54,616 bases of DNA from a bacterium (lineage in GTDB: Bacteria > Verrucomicrobiota > Verrucomicrobiia > Limisphaerales > UBA11358): the NCBI GenBank assembly GCA_021780375.1, contig JAJXYT010000076.1:1-54616 (forward strand), in the 5' to 3' direction. Each line of letters starts with the position of its first letter. Position 1 is the stretch's first letter. Below, piece after piece: positions 20,392 to 38,530 of the stretch. Position numbers and translations under genes: made by a program. Under the pieces are notes generated by a model. It did not search any database and had not been told where the DNA came from. It worked only from the letters and a program-made list of their open reading frames with translations.

Positions 20392-23300
20392 TCATGCCGG
20401 TTTGGCGCGCAGCGTCAGGTGCGACACCAGGGCGACCAATCCCCAGAGCGCCAGGAATGCCGCCGCCAGCGTCACGATGCGCGCCGGCCAGTTGACCGCC
20501 CGGGTGTTGGCCGCCTGCATCTGAATGGTCATCGGTTTGCCGGGTTCCGTCTGCAAAACCTGGGTAAACGCGTAATAGACGCCCCGGATCGGCAGGTTCA
20601 CGTGCAACGGCCGGACCCGGGCCACTCCGATTTCCTGGGCCTGCTGTAATTTTTCCGATTGTCGCGCCGCGGCGCCGGTGTCGTATTGCCCGACGGGCGC
20701 GCCGGCGGGCGCGGGCGCATTCAGCCCGCCCGCCGCCCGCCCGTTGCGCGATGAAAATTCGCTTTGGGCATTGATCAGGTTGCTGGCCTGGGCGTTTTGC
20801 AAATCCTCTTCGAGTTTTTGGACGTCCTGGACTTCTTCCGCTCCCTTGGCCGATTTGGCCTTGGCCCGCCAGAAATTCACGCTGGCCTCGCGGACGTTGC
20901 CGCTGGCCAGTTCGCGCTGCGCCGTGCTCACGTCCTGCCGGACTTCGACCTCGGCCTGTTGTCGGTTGGCCTGTTCCATGCGCGAGTAGTCGAGAACGGA
21001 GAAGCTCGCCGATGACCCGGCCGAGGCGGCGACCGCTTCGCGCGTCATCGTGCCGCCGAAATCCTGATAGTCGTAATCCGGCGGCAGATAAATTTCCCAG
21101 CGCGCATTCTTCAACGGCACGTCGAATTGCGGGGAGACGAACCGGACCGCGCCGCGGGTGCGCGGGAAGGTGTTGGTGCCGACGTAGGTCAACTCCACGG
21201 ACATCGCGCCGTCATCCACGCCGGATTGCTCGATGGGCAGCAGGATTTTTCCGTCGCGCAAACTCGGCTGCACCGGCTGGCCGGCCACGAACGCCGACCA
21301 GACTTTTGCGCCCGCCGGCAGTCCGATGGCGAGAAACTGCCGGCCATGGTTCCGCACGGACAGGGACATTTCGGTCATCATCTGGCCGTCATCGGCCAGG
21401 ACGCTGGTCAATTGCGCGCTGTCCACCAGCGCCTGCAGCACCCCGGCTTCGTCGAACCGGCGCGCCTCGAGCGTCAGTCGGTAACCCGGCCGCACGTAAT
21501 GATACACCAGCGCGGTCGAACGGTCCGGTTCGCCGGCCCAATCAGGAAAATCATCCGTGTCCACGCGCTGCAAATCCGCCGCGTTCAATTCGCTCACCTG
21601 CAACGGCGCCTGGGCCGAGACGGCCAGCAGGCCGGTTTCGCGTTCCACGCCTTCCGCCGACACTCCGGTCATTGCCATCGCGTTGGTTTTGACCGGGCGC
21701 GACTGGTCCCACGTGACCGTGAGCGTATAGAAGCCCTGCACCGGGCTTTGCAATTCCACGCGCCACAGACTGTAGTTGGTTTCGGAAGGACGAGCTATGC
21801 GAGTCCCCGACTGGCCGCCGTTCGAGGGGCTCGCGGTTGAATGATTGGGACTCGTGTAACTCGTCCCTCCGATGGTCGTCCCTCCCGGGATTTGTTCCTT
21901 GCTGCGGATGTTCGGACCGGAAATCTCGACGTTCTTGAATTCCGCCGGGACTTTCACCCGCAACTCCTGCACCGGCGCGTTGGCAATGTCATAACGCACC
22001 CGGGCGCGGCCGGTGACGAGCGTTTCGGTGAAGGCAAACGTGTTGACCACTTCGGCGCGCACCCAGGCGGCCACGGCCTCGGTCGCCACGCGCAGTCGCC
22101 ACTCCGGCGCGGATTTCGGTTCCGCCGAAATGAATTTATAAGCCAGCACATTGCCCGAGCCGGCCAGGGTTGCGTCCTCCGGCAGCGACACGGCCGGAAT
22201 CTCCGTGAGCCCGTCGAACGATTCGGTTTTGACCCCCACACCCGGTGTCGGAGAAACCGCGATAAAACCGGTGAGCTTCGCCGTGTCGAGCGGATACACG
22301 CCGGCGATGGCCAGCGATGAGGGCAGTGCCTTGAAGCTCCGCGTCAACTCGATGCCCAGGGTATAGGCACCGCTCGTGCGGTCTTTCAGTGTCACCTCCA
22401 GGATGCGTGAGACGCTCGCAGGTGGAGGGCCGAGCACCGCCTCGGCCTGTTTCGCATCGCTACTCGGTTGCGCCGGGGCGGTGCCCGGCGCTCCCGCCCG
22501 CTCGGTGTACTGCAAAATGTTGTCTCCGGTGACCCGTTCCACGCGGTACCCGTCGGGGAGCGCCACCCGCACTGCGAACAAGCCGGCGCGTTTGATGGTG
22601 TAATCAATCGTCGCCGACAGCGACACTTGCTCGGCGCCCACGCGGAAATTGTTCCGCACCACGGCTTCAATTTCCGGCCGGACGGTTTTGGCCTGCACGC
22701 GGAGGGCGAAGTCCGGAGTGGCAAACCGGAACACGCTGAACAGCCGGCCGGTCTGGTCCGCGCCGGCCCGCGTGAATTCCCCGGCGTCCACCCGCTCCAG
22801 ACCGGAAACGGATTCGACCGACAACCCCAGTTCCTCGGTCCCCTGCAAAGCCAGCAGTCCCGTCTCGCGCATTACCTCGAGGGCGTGCGGCACGGCCACT
22901 GCCTCGCTGACGGGCAGCGCCGCGAGGGTCTTCTCAGTTTCGATCGTCAATTTCCACGACGACGAGACTCCTTTGAGCAAATCCACGACGAGTATCTGCC
23001 CGCCGGGGAGCGCCGGCATCCCGCCGGCGTGTTCCGGATTCGCCGGCAGGATGCCGGCGCTCCCGGATGACTTGACTTCCCAGGTCCGGATTTCCTTTCC
23101 TTCGACCCGCAGGAGGCGTTGGCCGGGCGGCAACTGGACCCGCGCCTGGCGCAATTCGCCCTGTGTAATCTGATAATCCAGCGTGGCTCGTACATTGACC
23201 ACTCCGCCGCCGAAGGTGACGAGGGATTGGTTCCGGCAAAACACCGTGGCGGCCACTTCCGCCGCCCGCTTCACCCGCGGCGTCCAGGCCAGTTCAACAC

Positions 23301-26300
23301 GGTCGCCGGAGCCGACCACGGCTTCCACGCGGGTCCGGTCCTGGTCCAGAATGCGCTGAAACGAAATCGCCGTGGGAAAATCCACGTCCGCTCCGGATTC
23401 ATCCAGCGTGAGGGCGACCTGGCTGGACAACGCGGGCGGAATGCCGAAGGCGAGCCGGCGCTTGGTCACGTCACCGGCAATCTTGACCAGCAGTTTGACC
23501 TGCAACGTCACCGTGCCGCGGCGGTTGAGTTGCGCCGCCACGCCATCGCCATCCCGGATGAGTTCGGCGCGGCCGCCTTTGACCGTAAATTGCTGCACCG
23601 CCACGTCGCCGCCGAAGAGCGGAACGATCCGGCCCGGGGTGGCCGACGAGAATTGCAGCGTGGCATTCAACAGCGCCACACGGTCATTCACCGTCCCGGT
23701 ATAACTGGCCGAATCGATAGCAGCGTTGGCGATTTCGGAGTTCGAAGTTCGGAGATCGGAATTGGCGGCGCGTGTGCTGGCCGGACTGAAGGCGAACAGC
23801 AGGAGAATGGCGGCCATCACCGGCGGCAGGCCGGAAGCCGGCGCCGGCGGTCCGGCGGGGGGCGAGTCCAGGGGTTCCGATGTGTGGCGGCGCGGCCAGT
23901 AGCGCCAGACGAGCCAGGCCATGACGGCCAACGTCACCACCGGGAAGCCCACGATGAGCGCGTCGTGCAAGGCGCGCCATTGGACCAGCAGGCTGCACAC
24001 CGACCCGATGATTAACATCAGCGCCACGGTGAGCATGAATGAGCTGCGATGCAGCCGGCGCCATTGCAGCCACCACAGGATCAGACCGATTAAAAATGCC
24101 GCCGACTGCCACACCATTTGCAGGGTCTGGAAGGTATGCAGCGACATGATGCGCGCCCGGATGGAAAGCGGCTCGTCGCGGACGTTGAGCACTTTCGTGA
24201 ACAGGAACGGCTGGCCGGTCTGCGGCAATTCAATTCGGAGCGAACGGATGCCGGCGACGGTCGCCACCGGCGGCGGCGCAACGGTCAGAGGAACTCCGGA
24301 AGCCGGCGGGCCGGGTGTCGCTGGCGCCCCACCGCCTCCACCCCCGCCGTAACCGCCGGCGCCCAAAGTACCGCCGGACAGTGGCATTGCGGGCGCAGCG
24401 GTCCGGGGGCTGGCAACCAACTGGCCGCGCACCACGGCCTGTCGTTGTTGTTCCACAGCGATTTCCTGCGGCGTGGCCGTCTGCACCAAACCGCGCTGGG
24501 ATAATTGCGCGAAATTTCCAGCCGTCATCTGCTGGACGCTGCCGTCGGCGAAAAGCACTTCGCAGTGGTCGTTGACGATCGGACTATAAGCGAGGACGGA
24601 ATCGGGTTTGAGGCTGTCCAACGACATGCCGGCGCCCAGATAGGTGAAACGCCGGCCGGTTTCGACGTCGTAAGTGATCCGGTCCGTGTCCAGTTCATTG
24701 GTCATTTCGTCGAATGACATCGGCAGGCGATTGTTGTTGTCACCGGCAAAAAGCTGCGCGGCCACTCCGATTTGTTTGAGGTTACTGACGGAATTGATCC
24801 TTTGCGCCTTGCGTTTGGCGGCGGCCAGACTGGGCAATAACATGGCGGCCAGCACGGCCAGGATGGCCACGACGGCCAACAGCGTGAGGACGCCATTCCA
24901 GCCGCGCCGGACCGCGGAAATGACGAGCGCAATGACCAGGCAGGCGAGGAAACCGATGATGAGAATCGCGCCGCCCGCTTCGCGCAGGACCAGGACATAG
25001 AACCCGAGGAATTTTTCCCACGCGTCGAGCAATCCGTAGGTGGTGCCCTGGGCGATGTTCATGCTGCCGCCGAAATGGGAAAGCCGGAACGACGGCGGCA
25101 CGAGCAGTTGCCACTCCGCGTAGGTGTTCGGCACGTCGGTGCGCGGCGCGTCCAGTTCGAGGGTTTTCGACCAGGGTGATGCGAGCGCGCCATTGGTTTG
25201 TGCGTACACGATGTCCACGGCAAACGCCTGGTCGCGGTCCACATCGCGCGGCAGCGGGACCAGCACCCAGCCGCCGTCGCGCTCCGGTTTGGCCGGCTGG
25301 CCGTTGACGTAGCAGCTCCAGAGCGTCGCGGCCCGCGGCAATTGGAAGCGTTGAAATTGTTTCTCGTTGTTCTTTACCATGAACGAGGCCTGGGTCAGCA
25401 TTTCGCCGCTCTCGGCCAGCACCGAGGTGATTTGCGTGCGGTCGGCCACGGCTTCAAGCACCGGTTCCGTGGCGTAGCGACGCGCCTCCAGCGCCAGGTC
25501 GTATTGGTTGCCGGTGTATTGCCAGGCCAGCACGACGGCGCGGGTGATGAACGAACGGTCGGCGGCGGACAACTCGGTTTCATCCACCCGCCGCAGCGTG
25601 TCGCTCACGGTTTGCGGGTTGAGCTGCAGGCTGGCGGCGGTGGTGACGGCAATGGAACCGGTCTCGCGTTCCACGTCCACGGGGTGAATGCCGCCGACGG
25701 GCAGGCTGGCGTCGCCCTGGGCGGAATCAAAGGGATAATCGTACGTGACGACGAGCGTGTAACCGCCCCAAACCTTGTCCTGCAACCCAATCGTCCAAAC
25801 CACATCATTTGTGTCGAGTGTCGAGTGTCGAGTGTCGAGAGCATCATTTGGCCCTCGTCCCTCGTCTCTGGTCTCTCGACTTGATTCTTTGCGGCGGATA
25901 TTGGGACCGGTGAACTCGACATTTTTAAACTGCGCCGGGACCCGGACGTTGAATTCCTGCACGCCCTGGTTTGCCAGGCTGTAACGAATCGTCGCGCTGC
26001 CGCCCACCACCCCATCCCCGATGGTAACGAGGTTGAAGACATCGGCGACGACGCGGGCGGCCAGTTTTTCGCTGGCGATGGCCACTTGCCAGTCGGGTTG
26101 TTCAGCGGTATAGGCGAGAATTTCATCTCCGTGATCCGGCAGACGGCCCGCGGGCATTTCCCGCAGCCCGTTCAATTCAGCCGTTCGCAGCCGGATGCCG
26201 GGCGCAGCGGCCGCGCCGATCTGCGCGGTTTCCCTGGCCGCACCGATCACGCGCAACGGCCGGAGGCTGATTTGTCCGGGAAAAACTTTAAGCGCCTGTT

Positions 26301-27624
26301 CCAGTTGCACCTCGAGCTGGCGCCGGCCCAGCACGCGGCTGGCGAAACTCACCTGCAGCCGGCCCTCGCTCACCTTCCAGTCCTCGAGCCCTTCACCGCG
26401 GACGTCGGCCACGGCAAATCCGGGCGGTGGCACCAGTTCGAGCGTGTAGATACCGGCCTTTTCCACGTTGAGCGTGAGGCCGTGGGCCACCACCAGCCGC
26501 GTCTCCTCGAGCCGCGCGTTGACGCGGTCGGCCACATTGATGACCGGTTCCACCGGTTTGAGCCGGAGGGTCAGCGTGAAGGGGCGGGCATTGAAACGAT
26601 AGGCGGCCACGGCGTTGTCCGGCGCATTGACCTGGCGCAAACCGGTCAGCGAGTCAATTTCCGCCAGCATGTCCTCGGCGGAAATTGTCAGCGAGCCCGA
26701 TTCGCGGTCCACGTTCAGCGGCTGTGGCGGGTTCAGCGAAGCCGCCGCGGAGGCGGCGCGGCCAACCGGTTGCTCGGTGTAGAGCGTGAGGTCATAGGCG
26801 TTCTCAATGGGTTTGATAAATTCAACGGTCAACACCTGGTGAGCGCCCTCGGCGGCGGTGTGCCAGTCGCGGATCTGGTCGCCTTCTAGGCGCGTGAGCG
26901 CCTGCGCGGTGGGCAGGGCGAGTCGCAACTGCGCGGCATTGCCCTGGACGACGTCGTAATGAAACCGGCTGGTGTATTTGATGACCGTCGGCGTGATTTG
27001 CGCGCCGATGGTGGAATCCACGGTCAGCAGCGCTTTGCGGGCGACTTCGGCAATTTTGCCCTGCCAGCGCAGGGCGACGGTCTGGTCCGCGCCCAGAAAA
27101 CCGGTCACGCGGGAAACACCGTTGGTCCGGACCGCCTCCAGCAACGTGCCGTCGAGCAATTGCACTTCCGTGTTCGTGCCGATGGCCCGGGCGGTGACGG
27201 AGGCGATGGCCGCCGCGGGACCGACAAAGGAAATTTCGTTCCACGGTTCTCCGTGCTGGATTTTGGCAACCACGTCGAGCTTGAACTGGAAATGTCCCCG
27301 GCGTGACGCGATCAGTAGATAGGAGTTGCCTTCGCGAACGATTTTCAACGCGTCCGGCAGCCTCACCGGCAGCACCGCCACGTCGCCTTCGAGCAGCGGC
27401 GCCGAGCTTTCGCCGGTGGCTTCGGCGTCAATTCCCAGCGTAAATTGCGCCTCGTCGTCGGCCAGCCGGCCGTCGTAGCGGACTTCGCGGAAAATGAAAC
27501 TGCCTGCTGACAAAACCTTTTTAGAAACGACGGACTTGTCCACCGCACGGGTCTGAGGGATGGACTGGGCAAACATTGCGGAAGCCAGCAGACAAACCAG
27601 CAGGGTGACGATGGATTTTTTCAT
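20392..27624 (-). CDS. Giant exported membrane protein with two paralogous halves
   Basis: The start at 27624 is preceded by GGAG at 6 bases and gives 2410 residues. It begins with a signal peptide (MKKSIVTLLVCLLASAMFA). Two similar halves follow, each made of beta-rich repeats ('..VERETGSIAV..L..VDETEL', 'GLLALQGTEELGLSVESVSGLERVD', 'FKNVEFTGPNIR' / 'FKNVEISGPNIR') and each ending in a 'LP..G..F.FTKVL..' strand and membrane helices. The first half ends with a membrane block (residues 875-930) carrying a prepilin-like 'LPSLAAAKRKAQ..SNLKQIGVAAQLFAGDNN' module, then more helices (about 1170-1240); the second half starts with a second signal-peptide-like stretch ('VMAAILLLFAFSPASTRA', near 1270-1286) and ends in a TM helix near 2381-2401. 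Four repeat elements are inserted in frame. It heads the MoxR-DUF58-transglutaminase block. Function unknown; probably a large envelope protein. Confidence 0.85.
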   Translation of the reverse strand: MKKSIVTLLVCLLASAMFAQSIPQTRAVDKSVVSKKVLSAGSFIFREVRYDGRLADDEAQFTLGIDAEATGESSAPLLEGDVAVLPVRLPDALKIVREGNSYLLIASRRGHFQFKLDVVAKIQHGEPWNEISFVGPAAAIASVTARAIGTNTEVQLLDGTLLEAVRTNGVSRVTGFLGADQTVALRWQGKIAEVARKALLTVDSTIGAQITPTVIKYTSRFHYDVVQGNAAQLRLALPTAQALTRLEGDQIRDWHTAAEGAHQVLTVEFIKPIENAYDLTLYTEQPVGRAASAAASLNPPQPLNVDRESGSLTISAEDMLAEIDSLTGLRQVNAPDNAVAAYRFNARPFTLTLRLKPVEPVINVADRVNARLEETRLVVAHGLTLNVEKAGIYTLELVPPPGFAVADVRGEGLEDWKVSEGRLQVSFASRVLGRRQLEVQLEQALKVFPGQISLRPLRVIGAARETAQIGAAAAPGIRLRTAELNGLREMPAGRLPDHGDEILAYTAEQPDWQVAIASEKLAARVVADVFNLVTIGDGVVGGSATIRYSLANQGVQEFNVRVPAQFKNVEFTGPNIRRKESSRETRDEGRGPNDALDTRHSTLDTNDVVWTIGLQDKVWGGYTLVVTYDYPFDSAQGDASLPVGGIHPVDVERETGSIAVTTAASLQLNPQTVSDTLRRVDETELSAADRSFITRAVVLAWQYTGNQYDLALEARRYATEPVLEAVADRTQITSVLAESGEMLTQASFMVKNNEKQFQRFQLPRAATLWSCYVNGQPAKPERDGGWVLVPLPRDVDRDQAFAVDIVYAQTNGALASPWSKTLELDAPRTDVPNTYAEWQLLVPPSFRLSHFGGSMNIAQGTTYGLLDAWEKFLGFYVLVLREAGGAILIIGFLACLVIALVISAVRRGWNGVLTLLAVVAILAVLAAMLLPSLAAAKRKAQRINSVSNLKQIGVAAQLFAGDNNNRLPMSFDEMTNELDTDRITYDVETGRRFTYLGAGMSLDSLKPDSVLAYSPIVNDHCEVLFADGSVQQMTAGNFAQLSQRGLVQTATPQEIAVEQQRQAVVRGQLVASPRTAAPAMPLSGGTLGAGGYGGGGGGGAPATPGPPASGVPLTVAPPPVATVAGIRSLRIELPQTGQPFLFTKVLNVRDEPLSIRARIMSLHTFQTLQMVWQSAAFLIGLILWWLQWRRLHRSSFMLTVALMLIIGSVCSLLVQWRALHDALIVGFPVVTLAVMAWLVWRYWPRRHTSEPLDSPPAGPPAPASGLPPVMAAILLLFAFSPASTRAANSDLRTSNSEIANAAIDSASYTGTVNDRVALLNATLQFSSATPGRIVPLFGGDVAVQQFTVKGGRAELIRDGDGVAAQLNRRGTVTLQVKLLVKIAGDVTKRRLAFGIPPALSSQVALTLDESGADVDFPTAISFQRILDQDRTRVEAVVGSGDRVELAWTPRVKRAAEVAATVFCRNQSLVTFGGGVVNVRATLDYQITQGELRQARVQLPPGQRLLRVEGKEIRTWEVKSSGSAGILPANPEHAGGMPALPGGQILVVDLLKGVSSSWKLTIETEKTLAALPVSEAVAVPHALEVMRETGLLALQGTEELGLSVESVSGLERVDAGEFTRAGADQTGRLFSVFRFATPDFALRVQAKTVRPEIEAVVRNNFRVGAEQVSLSATIDYTIKRAGLFAVRVALPDGYRVERVTGDNILQYTERAGAPGTAPAQPSSDAKQAEAVLGPPPASVSRILEVTLKDRTSGAYTLGIELTRSFKALPSSLAIAGVYPLDTAKLTGFIAVSPTPGVGVKTESFDGLTEIPAVSLPEDATLAGSGNVLAYKFISAEPKSAPEWRLRVATEAVAAWVRAEVVNTFAFTETLVTGRARVRYDIANAPVQELRVKVPAEFKNVEISGPNIRSKEQIPGGTTIGGTSYTSPNHSTASPSNGGQSGTRIARPSETNYSLWRVELQSPVQGFYTLTVTWDQSRPVKTNAMAMTGVSAEGVERETGLLAVSAQAPLQVSELNAADLQRVDTDDFPDWAGEPDRSTALVYHYVRPGYRLTLEARRFDEAGVLQALVDSAQLTSVLADDGQMMTEMSLSVRNHGRQFLAIGLPAGAKVWSAFVAGQPVQPSLRDGKILLPIEQSGVDDGAMSVELTYVGTNTFPRTRGAVRFVSPQFDVPLKNARWEIYLPPDYDYQDFGGTMTREAVAASAGSSASFSVLDYSRMEQANRQQAEVEVRQDVSTAQRELASGNVREASVNFWRAKAKSAKGAEEVQDVQKLEEDLQNAQASNLINAQSEFSSRNGRAAGGLNAPAPAGAPVGQYDTGAAARQSEKLQQAQEIGVARVRPLHVNLPIRGVYYAFTQVLQTEPGKPMTIQMQAANTRAVNWPARIVTLAAAFLALWGLVALVSHLTLRAKPA
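21782..21872. repeat. Inverted-pair element (GTRIARPSE peptide) inside the giant gene
   Basis: The 26 bases at 21847-21872 differ by only one base from 50552-50577 in mfd. An inverted, diverged copy stands at 21782-21808, so the element can fold back. In the giant protein it is read as '..[16 protein letters not shown]..' and 'SGTRIARPSETN'. Confidence 0.85.
23003..23066. repeat. Palindromic 'AGILPA' element inside the giant gene
   Basis: The arms GGGGAGCGCCGGCATCC and GGATGCCGGCGCTCCC are inverted. It is translated as GSAGILPANPEHAGGMPALPG. A second copy lies between genes at 38532-38603. Confidence 0.9.
23731..23765. repeat. Degenerate 7-nt-period array inside the giant gene
   Basis: Five units (GATTTCG, GAGTTCG, AAGTTCG, GAGATCG, GAATTGG) are read on the coding strand as NSDLRTSNSEIAN, directly after the second signal-like stretch. 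Compare [10 protein letters not shown] and [10 protein letters not shown] in mfd. Confidence 0.75.
25811..25881. repeat. Inverted 7-nt arrays inside the giant gene
   Basis: Four GTGTCGA units (25811-25838) are followed by period-7 units of the complementary type (25850-25881). On the coding strand they give 'ESSRETRDEGRGPND' and 'ALDTRHSTLDTNDVV', between the conserved 'GPNIRRK' and 'WTIGLQDKVW' strands. Confidence 0.85.
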
Positions 27625-27995
27625 GGCGATCTCCGGGGTGACAGGTTGAAAGCCGGCGAATGGGCGTCGCTTCATAGAAATGCGCATAGCATCAGGAAGG
27701 CCACAGGGTAATCCTGTTGAAAATCCGCGGTTTTGTCCCAAACCGGCGCTGGCGGTGTCGCCGACCCTGCGTGGGCTGCACGCCGGTTGCGGAATTTTCA
27801 CGCGCGCGAATAACCGGTTCATACCGGGTCAGACGGAAGGCTGCGCCAAATGCTCCCGCGGAAATTATGGACCGCGGACGACGGAGGAACGGAAAACGAA
27901 AAGATTTAGCCCCGGCGGCTGATTCGTTGGCAGACACCTGGTTCAATGTTTTGGCCAGGAAGGAATCTTTGCCGTGGCAGAATCGGCAGGCTGCT
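27625..27995. other. Upstream region of the giant gene; no gene seen
   Basis: About 370 bases between the giant gene and the PIN pseudogene. It should hold the promoter of the minus-strand envelope block, but I see no convincing -35/-10 pair. Its left part codes nothing recognisable. Its right end contains the left copy of the repeat that flanks the PIN module. Confidence 0.4.
27949..27985. repeat. Left direct repeat flanking the PIN toxin-antitoxin module
   Basis: The sequence around TTGGCCAGGAAGGAATC (27951-27967) recurs with few changes at 28833-28870, in the same orientation, on the other side of the toxin-antitoxin pair. Confidence 0.65.
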
Positions 27996-28832: not shown

Positions 28833-28870
28833 GTTTGGCAAGGAAGGAATCCTTGCGGCTGTGGCGGATT
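28833..28870. repeat. Right direct repeat flanking the PIN module
   Basis: The sequence TTTGGCAAGGAAGGAATCC is the second copy of the repeat at 27949-27985. Together they enclose the toxin-antitoxin pair, and this copy runs into the start region of the next gene. Confidence 0.65.
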
Positions 28871-28875
28871 TTGCA

Positions 28876-29466
28876 ATGATGAATCACACGCCGATGAAAA
28901 CCGAAAAACAAAAGCTCATTCCCAAACGGCGGCGAACATTTGCGAGTCAAATCCGAACACTCGCCCAAACGGACATCGTCGCGGCTGAACTTCTGGCATC
29001 GCGTGGAAAGCAATTTAGTGAAATTGAGACGTTGCTTGCCAATTATTATGATGTCCTTGGTGAGTTACAGAGCCTAAAACCATCTGGCGACACTAAAACA
29101 CAAAAGCCGTCGGGCAATAGCCGGATTTGCTCAAAAGGGGTTGCTGGAGCAATCCGAGAATTCACGGAGAGAGACAGGATGAAATTGTGCCTCATTTTCA
29201 TTAGAGCGGTGGATTCCCGTGATTCCAAAAAAATCATTGAAATCGCAGAGGCGGTTGATTTTTCAAAATCATTCAAGGCGTCTGGTGACCGCTTGCGGCA
29301 TGACATTTTGGCTTTGAAAAACATACTCGACCGGTGCCGAGTAAGATGTCCGATACGAGATGTTGCCGAAGCTGTGAACTGGCCGGATATGAAAAGTCAG
29401 GATGGATTTTCACGCCTTCGCAGGCTGTGTGCTGAATTGAATTTTCCGCTCGCCCCTTCAAGATAA
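28876..29466 (+). CDS. Hypothetical helical protein
   Basis: The product is about 196 residues if it starts at the ATGATG at 28876; a GTG at 28861 and an ATG at 28894 are alternatives and none has a good ribosome site. The N-terminus is very basic (KTEKQKLIPKRRRTF). The rest is helix-rich and polar ('DIVAAELLASRGKQFSEIETLLANYYDVLGELQ', 'ILALKNILDRCRVRCP', 'DGFSRLRRLCAELNFPL'). Its base composition is more AT-rich than the surrounding housekeeping genes, which suggests an accessory origin. I recognise no family. Confidence 0.5.
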   Translation: MMNHTPMKTEKQKLIPKRRRTFASQIRTLAQTDIVAAELLASRGKQFSEIETLLANYYDVLGELQSLKPSGDTKTQKPSGNSRICSKGVAGAIREFTERDRMKLCLIFIRAVDSRDSKKIIEIAEAVDFSKSFKASGDRLRHDILALKNILDRCRVRCPIRDVAEAVNWPDMKSQDGFSRLRRLCAELNFPLAPSR

Positions 29467-29761: not shown

Positions 29762-30145
29762 ATGGACGACAAGCAACTGCTTTGGAAAGAATACGAGTTA
29801 AACATAACCACTTATCGCGGGCATCTTGAGTTGGCCCTGAAGATAAATATTTTTTATTATGCGATCACTGGAGCAATTTTGACTTATTATTTTGCCCACG
29901 ATGACCAGCCTCTGATCAGGCTGGCGCTTGTTTTTCCGTTGGCCATGAGCGTGTGTTTCGCGTTTCTGTTTGGCGTGGGTGCTTATCTATCGAAGAATAC
30001 ACGACGAGATACGCGAGAACTTGGAGCGCAACTGGGGTTTAAGGTTATACCAGAACTAGGCATTCTCACTCTTTTTCTGGCGATTTTTGCCGCACTTATG
30101 CTGCTGGTTTCGGCGGGCTTGTTTTTGCTAATTTTATTCAACTAA
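29762..30145 (+). CDS. Membrane protein with three TM helices
   Basis: The 127-residue product starts MDDKQLLWKEYELNI after GGAAAATGACCA-type upstream sequence. Helices: residues 27-44 ('INIFYYAITGAILTYYF'), 52-74 ('LALVFPLAMSVCFAFLFGVGAYL') and 101-126 ('LTLFLAIFAALMLLVSAGLFLLILF'). No signature was recognised. It lies 14 bases before the Sel1-repeat gene and is probably co-transcribed with it. Confidence 0.65.
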   Translation: MDDKQLLWKEYELNITTYRGHLELALKINIFYYAITGAILTYYFAHDDQPLIRLALVFPLAMSVCFAFLFGVGAYLSKNTRRDTRELGAQLGFKVIPELGILTLFLAIFAALMLLVSAGLFLLILFN

Positions 30146-30159
30146 ATCCAAACCGGAGC

Positions 30160-31167
30160 ATGAGCGCCAAAAGTGAGAAAAATAATTTCGCGTTGGTGCC
30201 GAGAATGCCGGCTGGACTCGAAAGAGCGAAGCCGGGAAGAAAGCGCGTTTTGTCCGGCATGGTTACGGACGCGCTCGCCCTCGTTCGCGCCGATGATTCA
30301 GAAGCCATTTTCAAACGTGGCGTGAGCTATTATTTCGGTGAGGGGATTCAACAGGATTATGTGATGGCGGCAAAAGTATTTCGTGAGGCAGCGGAAAAAG
30401 GCCATGCTGGAGCGCAATATAATTTAGCCATTTGCTATCGCGATGGCCAAGGGGTTTCGCAGAATTACGCCGAAGAAGTAAATTGGTATCGCAGAGCAGC
30501 AGACCAGGGACACACGGCGGCGCAAAATAACCTGGGGTATTGCTACCAGAGCGGGATTGGTGTTGTCCAGAACGACATCGAAGCTGCGAACTGGTATCGG
30601 AAAGCGGCTGAACAAGGATACGCATTTGCCCAAGGCAACCTTGGCTGGTGTTATCTAAAAGGTATTGGTGTGCCGCAGGACGACATCGAAGCCGTGGAGT
30701 GGATTCGCAAAGGCGCAGAACAGGGAGAAGCTCTTGGGCAGGCCAACCTTGGAATCTGCTACCAAGATGGGATTGGTGTCGCCCAAGACTACACCGAAGC
30801 TATGAAGTGGATTCGCAGAGCCGCGGAGCAGGGAGAAGCAGGCGCTCAAAACAATTTGGGCCTCTGCTACTTCAAAGGTCGAGGCGTTCCGCAGGACTAC
30901 CTCGAAGCTACAAAGTGGTTTCGCAAAGCAGCAGAACAGGGAAATAGTTCTGCTCAAAACAGCCTTGGTTACTTTTATGAGCATGGGCATGGGGTTCCAC
31001 AAGATTATACCGACGCCATCAATTGGTATCGTAAAGCCGCCGAGCAAGGAAATTCATTTGCCCAAAACAATCTGGGAGTTTGCTACGAGAAAGGGCTGGG
31101 GGTTCCAAAAGACAAAACGGAAGCAGACAGATGGTTTCATCGAGCGGCGGAACAAAGAGGCCAGTGA
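30160..31167 (+). CDS. Sel1-like repeat protein
   Basis: The 335-residue protein carries about eight Sel1-like repeats of 36 residues, each of the type 'AEQGxxxAQxNLGxCYxxGxGVPQDYxEAxxWxRKA', from residue 48 to the end. Sel1 repeats form helix-turn-helix superhelices and mediate protein-protein contacts. No signal peptide is present; the first 45 residues are basic and polar. The repeats are close copies at the DNA level, so the number of units may vary between strains. It follows a membrane protein and precedes the exonuclease gene by 17 bases. Confidence 0.9.
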   Translation: MSAKSEKNNFALVPRMPAGLERAKPGRKRVLSGMVTDALALVRADDSEAIFKRGVSYYFGEGIQQDYVMAAKVFREAAEKGHAGAQYNLAICYRDGQGVSQNYAEEVNWYRRAADQGHTAAQNNLGYCYQSGIGVVQNDIEAANWYRKAAEQGYAFAQGNLGWCYLKGIGVPQDDIEAVEWIRKGAEQGEALGQANLGICYQDGIGVAQDYTEAMKWIRRAAEQGEAGAQNNLGLCYFKGRGVPQDYLEATKWFRKAAEQGNSSAQNSLGYFYEHGHGVPQDYTDAINWYRKAAEQGNSFAQNNLGVCYEKGLGVPKDKTEADRWFHRAAEQRGQ

Positions 31168-31184
31168 AAACAATAAGCTCACTC

Positions 31185-32834
31185 ATGCGAAACACCACTT
31201 GGATTCTCTTCGACACCGAAACGACCGGCCTGTCCGCTCCGATTTTCGTGGTTGAGCTGGCAGCGCAGCGGATGCGCGGCTGGGTGACGGAGGGCGAGCC
31301 GTTCCGCAAGTTGCTCAATCAAAATCAGGAGATTCCCGCCGAGGCGTCACGCGTCCACGGCTACACGCGCGAAATTCTGGAGCGCGACGGCGAACCGGCG
31401 CAGCAGGTTTATCGGGCGTTCGCCGCCTACGCGGGCAATCTGCCGCTGGTGTCCTACAATCTGGAGTATGATTTGGACGAGGTGTTGCAGCCGGAATGGC
31501 GGCGGCTGCGCCTCGCGCCGGTGGGCGGGCGCGGTTTTTGCGCGTTGCGGCTGGCGCAACGGCTGCTGGACCCGGTGCCGGCGGGCAACTGCAAGTTGCA
31601 AACGTTGCGGCAGTATTATCGCCTGCCGGAACGCGGCGCGCACACGGCGCTGGGCGACGTGCAGACGGTGGCGGATTTGTTTGCCAACGTGCTGCGGCCC
31701 ATCGCGGGGCATCGCGGGCTGGATTCGTGGGAAAAACTGGCGGCGTTCGCGGCGGAGGAATGGTATCCGTCGCGCATCGCCTTCGGCAAACACAAGGGCC
31801 GGCTGATTCACGAAGCGCGCAAGGACGCGGAATTGCGCCGCTGGCTGGATTGGCTGGCGGGTTCAGCCAATGCGCGCAACGCGAAGATGGGGCGCTGGTA
31901 TTTGCGGCAGTTGGAAAAGGATTTGCCAGCAGATGCCACGGTGTTTGCCACGGCGGGTATTGACGGCAAACGGGCCAAGGCTGTTTTCACGACGGAACGG
32001 GCGGCGCTGGTTATTTACGTCAATCCGGAGTTGGAAGAGTTGAGGCAACTTGTGGCGGGCGCGCGGGCGCGGCTGGCGGAATTGGAAGTGGACTATGCCA
32101 GGGAAAAATCGCACGTGGACGCGATGCAGGCGGCGCTGTTCCGGCGGTTGCGCGAGCATTACCAGAAACGTGACCGGCTGCGGTTGATTTTGGATTACCG
32201 GAAGAAATATCTGGATTCGCTGGTACGCGGCGGCGAGGAGGAGGCCAGACAGGCCGAGGAGAATTACGAGAAGGCCAGGGCGCAGTCGGACCGGGATTAC
32301 GAGGAAACGGCGGCAGCGGTGGCGGAGAAGCAGGCGTTGACGGCAGCCGAGGAGGCGGAATTGAATGGCCTGTGGCGCAAGCTGGTGAAGCTGTATCATC
32401 CCGACCGTTTCGCGAACGAGCCGGACAAGCTGGCGACTTACGAAAAGCTGACCGCCGCCATCAACCGCGCGAAGGAGGCGGGCGACATCAAAACGCTGCG
32501 CGAAATTGCCGAGGACCCGGCGGGCTACATCCTGCGGCAAGGCTGGACGGGATTGGATTTCAGCGACGAGGTGGAACTGGCGGAATTGCGGCGGCTGCAT
32601 GAATCGTTGCAACTGGAAATCATCGCCGTCATCGAATCGCTGGAGCAATTGAAAGAAAGCGCGGAATACGAGCTTTGCGGCATTGTCGAGCAAAGGCCGG
32701 GCGTGCTGGACGAACTCGCGGCAGAGCGGACCAGGTTGCTGGAACAGGAAAGCGCGGAGTTGCAGCAAGAGGCGGAACGACTGGCGGAGGAGATCAAGGA
32801 ATTGAGCGGGGAGAAGCCATCACGGATTGGTTAG
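31185..32834 (+). CDS. DEDDh exonuclease fused to a DUF3820-like and a J-like domain
   Basis: The ATG at 31185 (MRNTTWILFDTETTG) starts a 549-residue protein; the frame opens earlier inside the Sel1 gene. Residues 5-180 are a DnaQ/RNase T-type 3'-5' exonuclease: 'LFDTETTG' (near residue 8), 'YNLEYDLDEVL' and 'HTALGDVQTVADLF' (H152, DEDDh type). Near residue 200 comes 'IAFGKHKGRLI..DAELRRWLDWL', a DUF3820-like segment found after exonuclease domains. A long charged coiled-coil region follows, then 'LNGLWRKLVKLYHPDRFANEP' with an HPD motif near residue 405, as in J domains, and another acidic coiled coil. The fusion suggests a nuclease that recruits an Hsp70-type chaperone; this is inference. 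Cytoplasmic. Confidence 0.8.
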   Translation: MRNTTWILFDTETTGLSAPIFVVELAAQRMRGWVTEGEPFRKLLNQNQEIPAEASRVHGYTREILERDGEPAQQVYRAFAAYAGNLPLVSYNLEYDLDEVLQPEWRRLRLAPVGGRGFCALRLAQRLLDPVPAGNCKLQTLRQYYRLPERGAHTALGDVQTVADLFANVLRPIAGHRGLDSWEKLAAFAAEEWYPSRIAFGKHKGRLIHEARKDAELRRWLDWLAGSANARNAKMGRWYLRQLEKDLPADATVFATAGIDGKRAKAVFTTERAALVIYVNPELEELRQLVAGARARLAELEVDYAREKSHVDAMQAALFRRLREHYQKRDRLRLILDYRKKYLDSLVRGGEEEARQAEENYEKARAQSDRDYEETAAAVAEKQALTAAEEAELNGLWRKLVKLYHPDRFANEPDKLATYEKLTAAINRAKEAGDIKTLREIAEDPAGYILRQGWTGLDFSDEVELAELRRLHESLQLEIIAVIESLEQLKESAEYELCGIVEQRPGVLDELAAERTRLLEQESAELQQEAERLAEEIKELSGEKPSRIG

Positions 32835-32888: not shown

Positions 32889-33539
32889 ATGGATTCAGAC
32901 CCGCCTTCGCTCGGAAGTTCCGGCGCGGCAGAAGCGGCACTGCTGGCGCGTTGCCGCCGCGGCGAACCGGACGCGTGGGACGAATTGTTCGATCTCCACT
33001 ACGCGGCGGCCGGGCGCTTCATTTTCCAACTGGCGCCCGATTTCACCCGCGAAGATGCCGAGGAAATCTGCCAGGAAGCCTTCCTGTCCGTCATCAAAAA
33101 CCTGGAGTCCTTCCACGGCGAAAGCCGGTTCCAGACCTGGCTCTTCCGCATCGCCGCCAACCAGGCGCGTGATTACCGGGAGAAGCGGAATGCCGCCAAA
33201 CGCGGCGGCGGACAATCCACCGTCTCGCTGCAAGCCGAAGACCCGGAAACCGGCCTCGCGCCCGACCCGCCGGCCAACCTGCCCGGGCCGGATGATCTGG
33301 CGATGAACGCCGAACAGATGGCCGGCGTGCGCGCCGCCCTCGACCGCGTCGGCGAACCGTGCCGTGAAATCATCGAACTGCGCTATTTCGGCGACTTGAG
33401 CTACGACGAGTTAAGCCGCACATTGAACTTGAATCCGAAGACCGTCAGTTCGCGCCTGAGCAAATGCCTGGACCGGCTGGAGGAAATCGCGCGCGGAATT
33501 TTTTCACGGGAAAACCGGGGTGTTTTCCCGTCCAACTGA
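32889..33539 (+). CDS. ECF RNA polymerase sigma factor
   Basis: The 216-residue product has sigma region 2 ('AWDELFDLHYAAAGRFIFQLAPDFTREDAEEICQEAFLSVIKNL' with 'FQTWLFRIAANQARDYRE') and region 4 ('LDRVGEPCREIIELRYFGDLSYDELSRTLNLNPKTVSSRLSKCLDRL'), joined by an acidic linker rich in Pro and Asp. Region 3 and 1.1 are absent, so it is an extracytoplasmic-function sigma factor. The next gene begins eight bases later and encodes a membrane protein with a cytoplasmic N-terminus, the usual place for the anti-sigma factor. Confidence 0.95.
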   Translation: MDSDPPSLGSSGAAEAALLARCRRGEPDAWDELFDLHYAAAGRFIFQLAPDFTREDAEEICQEAFLSVIKNLESFHGESRFQTWLFRIAANQARDYREKRNAAKRGGGQSTVSLQAEDPETGLAPDPPANLPGPDDLAMNAEQMAGVRAALDRVGEPCREIIELRYFGDLSYDELSRTLNLNPKTVSSRLSKCLDRLEEIARGIFSRENRGVFPSN

Positions 33540-33547
33540 CTGAACAC

Positions 33548-34888
33548 ATGGAACCGGAACGCGAAATTGAAAAGCTGTTGCGGGCGTACGTGCGGAAACG
33601 CCGGACCGACGCCGGTGACCCATTGAAACTGCATCCTGCGACGCGGCGGTTGTTGCAGGATGAAGTGTCGCGCCGCGCGCCGAAACCGGGAATGGAAGAA
33701 GCTTCGCTCTCGCTCTGGCAATTGTTCCGGCAGCGGTGGGCCTTCCTGCTGGGATTCGCGCTCATGATCTTTCTCGGCGCGCTGCTGGTGCTGCCGCCCT
33801 TAAGCAGCGCGAAACGCAAGGCGCAAAGCATGAACGCGATTAATAACCTCGAGCAAATCGGCGCCGCCGCCCAAATGGCCGCCGAAGAGAACAACGGCAA
33901 ATTGCCGATTTCGCTCGAGGCGCTGACGAACGGATTTGTCCCGGAACAAGTGCTGACGGACCCGGTCAGCGGCAAGCCGTTTGTTTATCTGGCCGGAGGG
34001 CAAAATCTGGATGAGCTGCCGAGCAATGCGGTGCTGGCTTATTCGCCGGTGGACAAGGATGGCCGGGCCGTCCTGCTGGCCGATGGTCGCGTCGAATACG
34101 CCGACCGTGCGCGCTTCCGCGAATTGACCAACCAAAAATCCTTCCAGCTCGCCCGGGCCGACAAGGTCGCACGTGAACAAGGGGCGAACGTTGCTTTCAA
34201 TGGGCCGGCCGCCGGCGCGGCATCTCCACCAGCTACACTGGCCCCCGCAGCCGCGCCTCCGGCTGTGCCGACGGTTGGCGGTGAACCGGCAATGCAAAAA
34301 TCCGAGGTGAACGCCACGCAATCATTTGTCCAAACCGGTGTCGCCGCCAATCAGCAAAACCGCTACCGCAACGTAGCTACCGCCGCTCAGACCGTTCCCG
34401 TGCTGCAATCGTTCCAGGTGCTGCAAAACGGAGACGTCGTATCCGTGGTGGACCGGGACGGCTCGGTGTACCAAGGCTCGGTGCAGATGGCCGCGGCGGA
34501 ACGTGAGGCGCCGCCGCCGCTCGGGGCAGCCAGCCGGGCGGTCGCGCCGTTGCCGGAGCAGGCCAAAACGATTCAACCGCCCGGCAATCAACCGCAAACG
34601 GTCCAGAATTATTTCTTCCGCGTGGCGGGAATGAACCGGACGCTGAAGCAGAACGTGGTGTTCACCGGCAACGTAGAAACGCTCCCCGGCGCGATTACGA
34701 ACATACCATCAACCCTCGGCGCTATCGGTGGTGTTGGTGGCGGCGGCGGCGGCGGAATAACGCAAACCAACCTGCCAGCCACCGCCAATCAACTGCAGTG
34801 GCAGTTGTCCAATTCCCGGGTGGTGGGAACAGCGGTAATTGATCACACCAATCAAATCCAAATCAACGCCGTGCCGGTCGCGCCATAG
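33548..34888 (+). CDS. Membrane protein downstream of ECF sigma, with prepilin-like module
   Basis: The 446-residue protein (MEPEREIEKLLRAYVRKRR) has a polar N-terminal part of about 60 residues, one TM helix (around 65-82, 'FLLGFALMIFLGALLVL'), then 'PPLSSAKRKAQSMNAINNLEQIGAAAQMAAEENN' near residue 84, and 'VLAYSPVDKDGRAVLLADGRVEYADRARF'. This matches the module in the middle of the giant protein and the usual H-x9-DG type prepilin text of Verrucomicrobiota. The C-terminal 250 residues are Pro/Gln/Ala-rich with 'VLQNGDVVSVVDRDGSVYQGSV' and a glycine run. Position and topology suggest an anti-sigma or sensor role for the upstream sigma factor; no zinc-anti-sigma motif is visible. Confidence 0.75.
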   Translation: MEPEREIEKLLRAYVRKRRTDAGDPLKLHPATRRLLQDEVSRRAPKPGMEEASLSLWQLFRQRWAFLLGFALMIFLGALLVLPPLSSAKRKAQSMNAINNLEQIGAAAQMAAEENNGKLPISLEALTNGFVPEQVLTDPVSGKPFVYLAGGQNLDELPSNAVLAYSPVDKDGRAVLLADGRVEYADRARFRELTNQKSFQLARADKVAREQGANVAFNGPAAGAASPPATLAPAAAPPAVPTVGGEPAMQKSEVNATQSFVQTGVAANQQNRYRNVATAAQTVPVLQSFQVLQNGDVVSVVDRDGSVYQGSVQMAAAEREAPPPLGAASRAVAPLPEQAKTIQPPGNQPQTVQNYFFRVAGMNRTLKQNVVFTGNVETLPGAITNIPSTLGAIGGVGGGGGGGITQTNLPATANQLQWQLSNSRVVGTAVIDHTNQIQINAVPVAP

Positions 34889-37504: not shown

Positions 37505-38530
37505 ATGGCGTTCAAAAATTTCTCCAAACCATCGCAAGGCGTGCAATTGCTGCAACGCTCGCTGGCGCGCGGGCGGCTCGGCCACGCCTACCTGTTCACC
37601 GGCCACCGGCCGGAGGAACTGGAGTTGCTCGCCCGGACGCTGGCCAAGACGTTGAATTGCCAGAAACCGGTCAAGACCGGCGGGGTAGCGACCGATTGTT
37701 GCGACGAATGCCTGAGCTGCCGGAAGATTGACCACGAAACGCACGCCGACATTCATTGGGCGCGGCCGGAATCCAGGTCGCGCGTCGTCACCGTCGAGCA
37801 AATGCGCGACTTGATGCGGGAGATTCAACTCAAACCGGCCGAGGCCGAATACAAGGTCGCCATCATCGCGGCGGCGGACCGTTTGAATCCGCAGGCCGCC
37901 AACGCCTTCCTGAAAACGCTCGAAGAACCGCCGGCCAAGTCCGTGCTGGTTTTGCTTTCCACCGAACCCCAGCGGATTCTGGAAACGATTTTGTCACGCT
38001 GTCTGCGCCTGAATTTCTCCGCCGAAAGCGGCTACGCGCCGGACGAAGCGCAATCCGAATGGCTCGCGGCCTTCGGCGCTTTGGCGGCGGGCGGGCAAAA
38101 GAGCCTGCTGGGCCGTTATCGCCTGCTGGATGTGTTGCTGCAAAAACTCGGCGAAATCCGCGCGCGCGTGGACGAGGCGCTCACGGCGCGCTCGCCGCTG
38201 CAACGGTATGATGACGTGGAAAAGGACTTGCGGGAAAGGTGGGAGGATGAACTGGCCGCGGCCATCGAGGCGGAATACCGGCGGCAGCGGGCGGATTTGT
38301 TGCTGCTGGTGCAATGGTGGCTGCGCGACGTCTGGCTGCGCAGCCTGGCGGTTGGCGGTGAATTGTTGAATTTCCCCAAAATGGCCGGTGTGGAAGCCGT
38401 GGCCAAAAAAATCTCGCCGCGGCAAGCCCTGGAAAATCTGCAAACCCTGGAACAGACGCAACGGCTGTTGCACACCAATGTCCAGGAAGCGCTGGCGCTG
38501 GAGGTGGGACTGTTAAAACTCCACCTTTGA
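37505..38530 (+). CDS. holB: DNA polymerase III subunit delta'
   Basis: The 341-residue AAA-type protein opens 'LGHAYLFTGHRPEELELLARTLAKTLNC', where the Walker A GKT is replaced, so it cannot bind ATP as DnaX does. A zinc module follows ('DCCDECLSCRKI' with an upstream Cys), then 'RVVTVEQMRDLMREIQLKPAEAEYKVAIIAAADRLNPQAANAFLKTLEEPP' and 'LVLLSTEPQRILETILSRC' (SRC motif). This is the pattern of HolB, the clamp-loader wrench subunit. It sits 22 bases after the mannanase gene but is functionally unrelated to it. Confidence 0.9.
   Translation: MAFKNFSKPSQGVQLLQRSLARGRLGHAYLFTGHRPEELELLARTLAKTLNCQKPVKTGGVATDCCDECLSCRKIDHETHADIHWARPESRSRVVTVEQMRDLMREIQLKPAEAEYKVAIIAAADRLNPQAANAFLKTLEEPPAKSVLVLLSTEPQRILETILSRCLRLNFSAESGYAPDEAQSEWLAAFGALAAGGQKSLLGRYRLLDVLLQKLGEIRARVDEALTARSPLQRYDDVEKDLRERWEDELAAAIEAEYRRQRADLLLLVQWWLRDVWLRSLAVGGELLNFPKMAGVEAVAKKISPRQALENLQTLEQTQRLLHTNVQEALALEVGLLKLHL

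What the first reader, a model, noticed from the sequence alone, without database searches (positions are those of the whole stretch)
31185..32834. Exonuclease fused to a J-like domain
A DEDDh nuclease, a DUF3820-like segment, a coiled coil and an HPD-containing segment occur in one chain. The HPD tripeptide is the functional core of J proteins that activate Hsp70. A nuclease that brings Hsp70 to nucleic acid, or is itself remodelled, would be unusual. The gene stands next to Sel1-repeat and membrane genes of AT-richer composition, which points to an accessory system.
Basis: partly seen in the sequence, partly recalled or inferred. Interest (0 to 1): 0.55.

Follow-up and report, generated by a model that had tools for sequence, protein, structure and literature searches.

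The report
Tagged-sensor and nuclease–co-chaperone gene module
A bacterial nucleic-acid-cutting enzyme joined to a chaperone-activating segment is one half of a mobile two-gene module whose partner proteins share one short tag but carry very different sensing parts, possibly a new kind of chaperone-gated bacterial immune system.

Summary
The fusion is real: 31185-32834 encodes a DEDDh exonuclease, a variable linker, a coiled coil and a J-like hairpin with an invariant HPD; both halves are under purifying selection.

In its order, the gene directly upstream usually encodes a protein with a conserved ~38-residue N-terminal tag followed by an interchangeable part: Sel1, receiver, LRR, HEAT+Sel1, PTS EIIA or an Hsp70 substrate-binding domain. 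The tag was found in 16 of 320 genomes, all among the 19 with a near-full-length J half. The J half also stands alone, as its own clade, so the exonuclease is optional. Identity is flat across families: the module moves horizontally. Defence-type genes lie upstream at several loci (CBASS cyclase + 4TM effector, TIR, Fic).

Best reading (inferred): a chaperone-gated conflict module in which the tag puts a sensor under a dedicated J protein and DnaK, as ChAD tags do in toxin–antitoxin–chaperone systems, and infection releases the effector. Tag–J binding, DnaK contact, nuclease activity and phage defence are untested; the J match is modest and lacks a canonical helix I.

The parts
31185..32834 (+). 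ExoJ: DEDDh exonuclease (res 1-175), ExoX-like C-terminal part (176-245), variable linker (246-275), coiled-coil hairpin (281-380), J-like hairpin with HPD (387-443), C-terminal helices (461-541)
31185..31967 (+). Exonuclease half, residues D10 E12 D96 H153 D158 invariant in 9 of 9 rows
32001..32831 (+). J half; occurs as a stand-alone gene in other genomes
32397..32405 (+). HPD tripeptide, residues 405-407
30160..31167 (+). Tagged partner gene, here with 8 Sel1 repeats; ends 17 bases before the ExoJ ATG
30178..30288 (+). Conserved N-terminal tag of the partner protein (profile positions 1-37 of 38)
29762..30145 (+). 127-aa membrane protein upstream, two hydrophobic segments by hydropathy; possible effector (weak 8xMP match, E 0.017, below cut-off)
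   Evidence: role inferred
28861..29466 (+). 201-aa ORF with no Pfam or PADLOC match, partly in the AT-rich stretch; membership uncertain

Best explanation
This is one copy of a mobile, modular conflict (probably anti-phage) module of Limisphaerales. Its core is (a) a partner protein with a shared ~38-residue tag followed by an interchangeable sensing or binding part (here Sel1 repeats) and (b) a dedicated J-like co-chaperone with a long coiled coil, fused in the main subtype to a DEDDh 3'-5' exonuclease. Shown by sequence: the fusion, the tag, its specific co-occurrence with the J half, the interchangeable domains, purifying selection, signs of horizontal spread, defence-type genes upstream at several loci. 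Inferred: the tag docks on the J half and is handed to DnaK; this holds the sensor and its upstream effector inactive or unstable, as SecB-like chaperones do with ChAD-tagged antitoxins in TAC modules; infection disturbs the chaperone complex (for example by phage proteins occupying J or DnaK) and frees the effector, while the exonuclease degrades nucleic acid.
For: Tag profile in 16 of 320 order genomes, all 16 among the 19 with a near-full-length J half (hypergeometric p about 2e-24; genomes are related, so nominal). A tagged gene is the next gene upstream on the same strand at 15 of 21 assessable J places, a 16th (G690) by eye. All 23 tagged genes were scanned with Pfam: Sel1, Response_reg, LRR, HEAT, PTS_EIIA_2 and Hsp70 substrate-binding region (E 1e-24), 22 over cut-off. 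A second Hsp70 substrate region (E 4e-28), untagged, lies directly before a J-only gene. Median dN/dS 0.13 for both halves. ExoJ identity to the window is 76-80% in eight genomes of several families, while a clamp-loader-like gene varies 56-81% in the same eight. Upstream genes: CBASS cyclase (E 6e-61) + 4TM effector (4e-15) in G073, ThsB_TIR (2e-16) in G559, Fic (7e-19) and a weak trypsin-like match in G138, SIR2-like beside a tagged gene in G565:C432; on the other strand in G031 Schlafen AlbA and a TrwC relaxase. Precedents: CmdTAC and ChAD (PMC11618068 passages; PMC5105189 abstract); DnaJ needed for phage sensing by bNACHT25 (PMC12169576 abstract).
Against: The J domain scores below Pfam's cut-off in the window and lacks a recognisable canonical helix I; profile comparison with the genome's two DnaJ domains gives E 6.5e-4 but probability only 27.5, and a J-half profile against solved structures reaches J domains only at E 0.17. 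Tag and J-half distances do not correlate once G690 is left out (r = -0.22, n = 14): this fits exchange of tagged genes but gives no support for co-evolved binding. 5 of 21 assessable J places have no tag. The window has no recognised defence gene among the genes scanned beside it, and several loci have ordinary or unknown neighbours. The G073 copy next to CBASS has a stop codon and a lost first catalytic Asp. No binding, nuclease or phage data exist.
Confidence: 0.42

Rival explanations
1. Adaptor model without immunity: tagged Sel1/REC/LRR/SBD proteins are interchangeable substrate adaptors that recruit client proteins to the J protein and DnaK (as the receiver protein RssB does for ClpXP, recalled), i.e. 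a regulatory proteostasis module.
For: Most partner domains are binding modules (Sel1, LRR, HEAT, receiver, Hsp70 substrate region); HPD invariant.
Against: Does not explain the exonuclease, the patchy horizontal spread, or CBASS, TIR and Fic genes next to the module.
Confidence: 0.2
2. Nuclease-scaffold model: the HPD hairpin is only structural and does not touch DnaK; the tag and coiled coil assemble a complex that positions the exonuclease.
For: DnaJ match under the Pfam cut-off, no canonical helix I.
Against: HPD kept in the divergent G690 copy and in J-only genes that have no nuclease; the J segment is among the best conserved (84% mean identity among ExoJ rows without G690); Hsp70 substrate region as a neighbour domain twice.
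Confidence: 0.17
3. Cassette element: tag and J 5' end are mainly the conserved ends of a gene-cassette array that recombines within the J gene, and the proteins' joint function is secondary.
For: Two ~75-base J 5' remnants between genes in G031 and G001 end at the same bases (CTGGCGGAATTGG-like), and J homology starts near that point in G653 and G570; tag and J distances do not match.
Against: Strong purifying selection on protein sequence; among the neighbours scanned the only recombinase-like match was a weak one in G690; fragment ends occur elsewhere in the gene too.
Confidence: 0.1
4. Ordinary DNA-repair exonuclease that happens to be fused to a J-like hairpin.
For: DnaQ/ExoX-type catalytic domain with all residues.
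Against: Patchy presence, decayed copies, tagged partner, J-only clade.
Confidence: 0.05

Closest known systems
Toxin-antitoxin-chaperone (TAC) modules, CmdTAC, ChAD sequence
   Same: Operon with a dedicated chaperone component and a short transferable tag on the partner; used in phage defence (PMC5105189 abstract, PMC11618068 passages)
   Different: Chaperone there is SecB-like and the tag is C-terminal on an antitoxin; here a J-like protein with or without an exonuclease, and a (nearly always N-terminal) tag on many unrelated domains
GTPase-centric conflict systems with HSP70, GrpE and DnaJ-fused FNIII proteins (Kaur et al. 2020, PMC7159879, 12 passages seen)
   Same: Modular conflict systems with variable effectors and Hsp70/DnaJ parts
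   Different: No GTPase, MoxR or vWA gene among the neighbours scanned here; no exonuclease-J fusion or shared N-terminal tag in the passages seen
bNACHT25, which needs host DnaJ to sense phage coat protein (PMC12169576, abstract and outline)
   Same: J protein in phage sensing
   Different: Uses the host DnaJ; here a dedicated J-like protein is encoded in the module
DEDDh/ExoX-DUF3820 exonucleases (DnaQ superfamily)
   Same: Catalytic domain and ExoX-like C-terminal part
   Different: No coiled coil or J half in the listed hits; 20 of 37 plasmid and 19 of 19 phage records were listed, and these align only within residues 1-238 at about 24-33%
DinG with N-terminal 3'-5' exonuclease (PMC12345164, search listing only)
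   Same: Exonuclease domain fused to another functional protein
   Different: Helicase instead of a J-like half

Membership tests
DEDDh 3'-5' exonuclease | D-E-D-D-H catalytic residues in Exo I, II, III motifs | tested here: met
   Pfam 3e-14; residues invariant in 9 of 9 rows; the G073:C77 copy, not in that alignment, has lost the first
DEDDh 3'-5' exonuclease | Exonuclease activity | not testable with these tools
   needs a biochemical assay
J-domain protein | HPD in the connection between helices II and III | tested here: met
   model of the J half, helices 126-142 and 152-170 with HPD 144-146 between them; HPD invariant
J-domain protein | Sequence match to the J family above curated cut-off | tested here: not met
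   window copy 17.8 bits against 27.8; best E over 13 members 1e-4
J-domain protein | Full four-helix J fold including helix I | tested here: inconclusive
   the helix before the HPD helix belongs to the coiled coil in the model; fold search dominated by coiled coils
J-domain protein | Stimulates an Hsp70 ATPase | not testable with these tools
   needs an assay with DnaK
Toxin-antitoxin-chaperone (TAC) | SecB-like chaperone | not tested
   no SecB search was run; the chaperone-like component here is J-like
Toxin-antitoxin-chaperone (TAC) | Short tag on partner that binds the chaperone | not testable with these tools
   a shared tag exists; binding untested
CBASS | CD-NTase cyclase plus effector at the locus | tested here: not met
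   seen at one locus (G073); not found among the window's three upstream genes scanned
MoxR-vWA or GTPase-centric conflict systems | MoxR/vWA or TRAFAC GTPase gene | tested here: inconclusive
   none among the neighbours scanned, but not every neighbour was scanned

The most novel reading that the evidence does not exclude
A new class of chaperone-gated bacterial immune module: one conserved tag makes many different sensors (Sel1, receiver, LRR, HEAT, EIIA, Hsp70 substrate-binding domain) clients of one dedicated J-like protein, itself often fused to an exonuclease, so that Hsp70 traffic itself is the infection sensor and sensors and effectors are swapped as cassettes.
Probability: 0.3. Interest if true: 0.8.

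Novelty: new variant of a known kind. Interest (0 to 1): 0.6.

Why it matters
If right, it would put an Hsp70/J co-chaperone where known TAC systems have a SecB-like chaperone, and a single transferable tag would explain how unrelated sensing domains are plugged into one immune output. The tag, the J-only form and the ExoJ form give a ready set of parts to test chaperone-based infection sensing, a question raised by CmdTAC and bNACHT25.

Tried and rejected
Exonuclease–J fusions elsewhere: no record in 72,556 plasmids (37 with a match, 20 listed) or 50,697 phages (19 with a match, all listed) had one place covering 80% of the protein; the listed hits were to the exonuclease half only. No relative of the J half in IMG/VR by back-translated patterns. 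J half in 1 of 387 phylum genomes, the window's own; none of the order's other positive genomes was in that sample. Close relatives in genome contigs: 7 loci, six titled as Limisphaerales or other Verrucomicrobiota, one as an unnamed bacterium. Other phyla were searched only through.

Fold search of the J half: no match at E <= 0.001 by Foldseek and mostly coiled-coil or helical-bundle arrangements among the rows shown by VIA-align (best Z 8.9 with rmsd 23): uninformative, no J fold among the rows shown. The full-length model is poor in the exonuclease half (pLDDT under 50 at residues 1-177) and was not used there.

Tag–J co-evolution (Mantel): r = 0.43, p = 0.08 with G690 (n = 15), r = -0.22 without it (n = 14); against the exonuclease half r = -0.31, n = 10: no support. 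One tag per locus was used, at 15 loci; the sixteenth, G062, was left out because its nearest tag is cut by a contig end.

A recombination site in the J gene is suggestive only (Noticed in passing). It resembles part of tRNA-Leu genes as I recall them, but ARAGORN found no tRNA in L078, the locus whose match outside J made me think of it. A conserved DNA site upstream of tagged genes: none seen by eye. PADLOC hit PDC-S48 (E 3e-13, residues 1-245) covers the exonuclease part and was not taken as membership.

Literature: searches of the held PMC library with the terms listed (titles and abstract starts; 15 of 25 papers, 8 of 23, 12 of 81) no paper on an exonuclease–J fusion or this tag; subscription papers and preprints are not held, so this is weak evidence of novelty. 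Papers seen: PMC7159879 (passages), PMC12169576 (abstract, outline), PMC11618068 (passages), PMC5105189 (abstract, outline), PMC12345164 (search listing). RssB is recalled.

Full report
Observation. The ORF at 31185-32834 (549 aa) has a DEDDh exonuclease (Pfam RNase_T 3e-14; catalytic residues invariant in 9 of 9 aligned halves), an ExoX-like C-terminal part (NCBIfam exodeoxyribonuclease X over 9-221, E 1e-7, below cut-off), a linker that is hardly conserved (35% mean identity against 74-85% for the other parts among ExoJ rows without G690), a coiled coil and an HPD segment. DnaJ is the only Pfam family matched at E <= 0.1 by 13 of 13 J halves scanned (best E 1e-4), although the window's copy alone is below the curated cut-off. 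AlphaFold2 of the J half (13 sequences, mean pLDDT 79.5) gives helices 126-142, 152-170 and 174-182 with HPD 144-146 between the first two. A canonical helix I is not evident; a profile comparison with the genome's two DnaJ domains aligns only helix II, HPD and the start of helix III (E 6.5e-4, probability 27.5).

The J half is a separable unit. In G001, G025, G082, G143, G138:C11 and G565:C42 it is a gene of its own that starts about where the linker ends; these six form one clade with support 0.999. Three other copies without a full exonuclease (G123:C413, G653, G565:C632) are truncated or at a contig end and fall among ExoJ. G138 and G565 carry both forms. The exonuclease is therefore an optional addition.

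The partner. The gene just upstream, here the Sel1 gene, begins with a ~38-residue tag. A profile from ten tags matches 16 of 320 genomes of the order. The J-half profile matches 42 of 320, of which 19 have a near-full-length copy (at least 240 of 278 positions in one match; 24 places); the other 23 have fragments or only a match to the J core, the latter probably other J proteins. All 16 tag genomes are among the 19. The tag hits come from 23 genes (24 rows, two being halves of one gene split over contigs); 19 of the 23 lie on the same contig within about 5 kb of a J half, the other 4 on other contigs (G062:C280 two, G598:C96, G025:C364). Of the 24 J places, 3 cannot be judged because the contig ends (G598, G025, G565:C632); of the 21 others 15 have a tagged gene directly upstream on the same strand, G690 has a diverged tag recognised by eye, and 5 have none (G123:C196, G123:C413, G073:C7, G565:C42, G653; the C413, C7 and G653 copies are visibly damaged). 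At 5 of the 15 (G031, G051, G062, G561, G143) the stop and start overlap by 4 bases. A partial ExoJ at a contig end (G565:C432) has an untagged Sel1-receiver gene upstream and a tagged Sel1 gene pointing the other way.

What follows the tag varies: of the 23 genes, Sel1 in 10 (one with HEAT repeats, one with membrane helices), receiver domains in 8 (one with a Sel1 repeat too, one only weakly, below cut-off), LRR in 3, PTS EIIA in 1, and an Hsp70 substrate-binding region without the ATPase domain in 1. A second such Hsp70 region, without the tag, lies directly before the J-only gene of G565:C42 (E 4e-28). The two are 55% identical; the G138 one is 34-42% identical to the longer Hsp70 genes of G000, G138 and G565, so it is not a recent copy of the housekeeping gene. 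An Hsp70 substrate region as partner of a J-like protein is the best independent hint that the HPD is meant for the Hsp70 cycle.

Selection and transfer. Median dN/dS is 0.13 for both exonuclease and J halves over 36 pairs of nine ExoJ genes, and 0.20 for the J half over 10 pairs of five J-only genes. ExoJ identity to the window is 80, 79, 78, 78, 77, 76, 78 and 77% in G031, G123, G051, G073, G062, G138, G563 and G565:C174, against 81, 71, 56, 70, 62, 67, 72 and 73% for the gene at 37505-38530, which reads like a clamp-loader subunit (my reading). G690 is an exception, divergent in both. This flat profile and the patchy distribution point to horizontal transfer. Distances of tag and J half do not correlate without G690, as expected if tagged genes are exchanged, but this also means no co-evolution signal.

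Neighbourhood. Genes upstream of the tagged gene differ from locus to locus and several are of defence type: a CD-NTase cyclase and a 4TM CBASS effector in G073, a ThsB-type TIR protein in G559, Fic and a weakly matched trypsin-like peptidase in G138:C194, a SIR2-like gene before a tagged gene in G565:C432, a weak GNAT-like gene and an addiction-module antidote in G138:C11, small membrane proteins in the window and G001; in G031 a Schlafen AlbA gene and a TrwC relaxase lie on the other strand. Others are ordinary or unknown: SelA and LemA near G062, UvrB near G559, DNA ligase near G565:C174, aminotransferases near G051 and G001, and several ORFs with no family. Not every neighbour was scanned.

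Mechanism. Shown: shared tag, constant J-like half, optional exonuclease, interchangeable partner domains, selection, signs of mobility. Inferred: tag docks on the J half; DnaK is engaged; a sensor or its effector is held in check and released on infection. The closest working model is the TAC module, in which a short ChAD tag makes a partner chaperone-dependent and is transferable (PMC5105189, abstract) and a phage capsid protein displaces the chaperone (PMC11618068, passages). bNACHT25 shows that a J protein can be central to phage sensing (PMC12169576, abstract). I hold this reading at 0.42; adaptor, scaffold and cassette readings are listed as rivals.

Noticed in passing
L080 7171-7245 (-) and L061 10326-10400 (+): Two ~75-base remnants of the start of the J gene lie between genes in G031 and G001 and both end at the same CTGGCGGAATTGG-like stretch; J homology begins near this point in G653 (L116 ~7987) and G570 (L127 ~7898). 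Possible recombination site inside the J gene.
   Followed up: partly
L068 10280-10490 (G073:C77): The ExoJ copy next to the CBASS genes has an in-frame stop and a lost first catalytic Asp at its exonuclease start, while its J half matches over full length.
   Followed up: partly
L073 1651-3557 (G025:C364): The tag core sits inside a long protein, after eight hydrophobic segments and a helical-looking stretch and before Sel1 repeats, so it need not be N-terminal.
   Followed up: no
L118 5652-7970 (G690): Divergent version: exonuclease half 72% but J half only 46% identical to the window, with an LRR partner whose N-terminus looks like a diverged tag.
   Followed up: partly
L074, L075 (G040), L120-L121 (G586), L122 (G649), L076 (G010), L079 (G030): Several genomes keep only pieces of ExoJ or the J half, suggesting rapid gain and loss.
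   Followed up: no
window 33464-34888 and 20392-27822: The protein after the ECF sigma factor and the 2476-aa ORF on the other strand share a stretch 40% identical over 145 residues; it looks pseudopilin-like to me.
   Followed up: no
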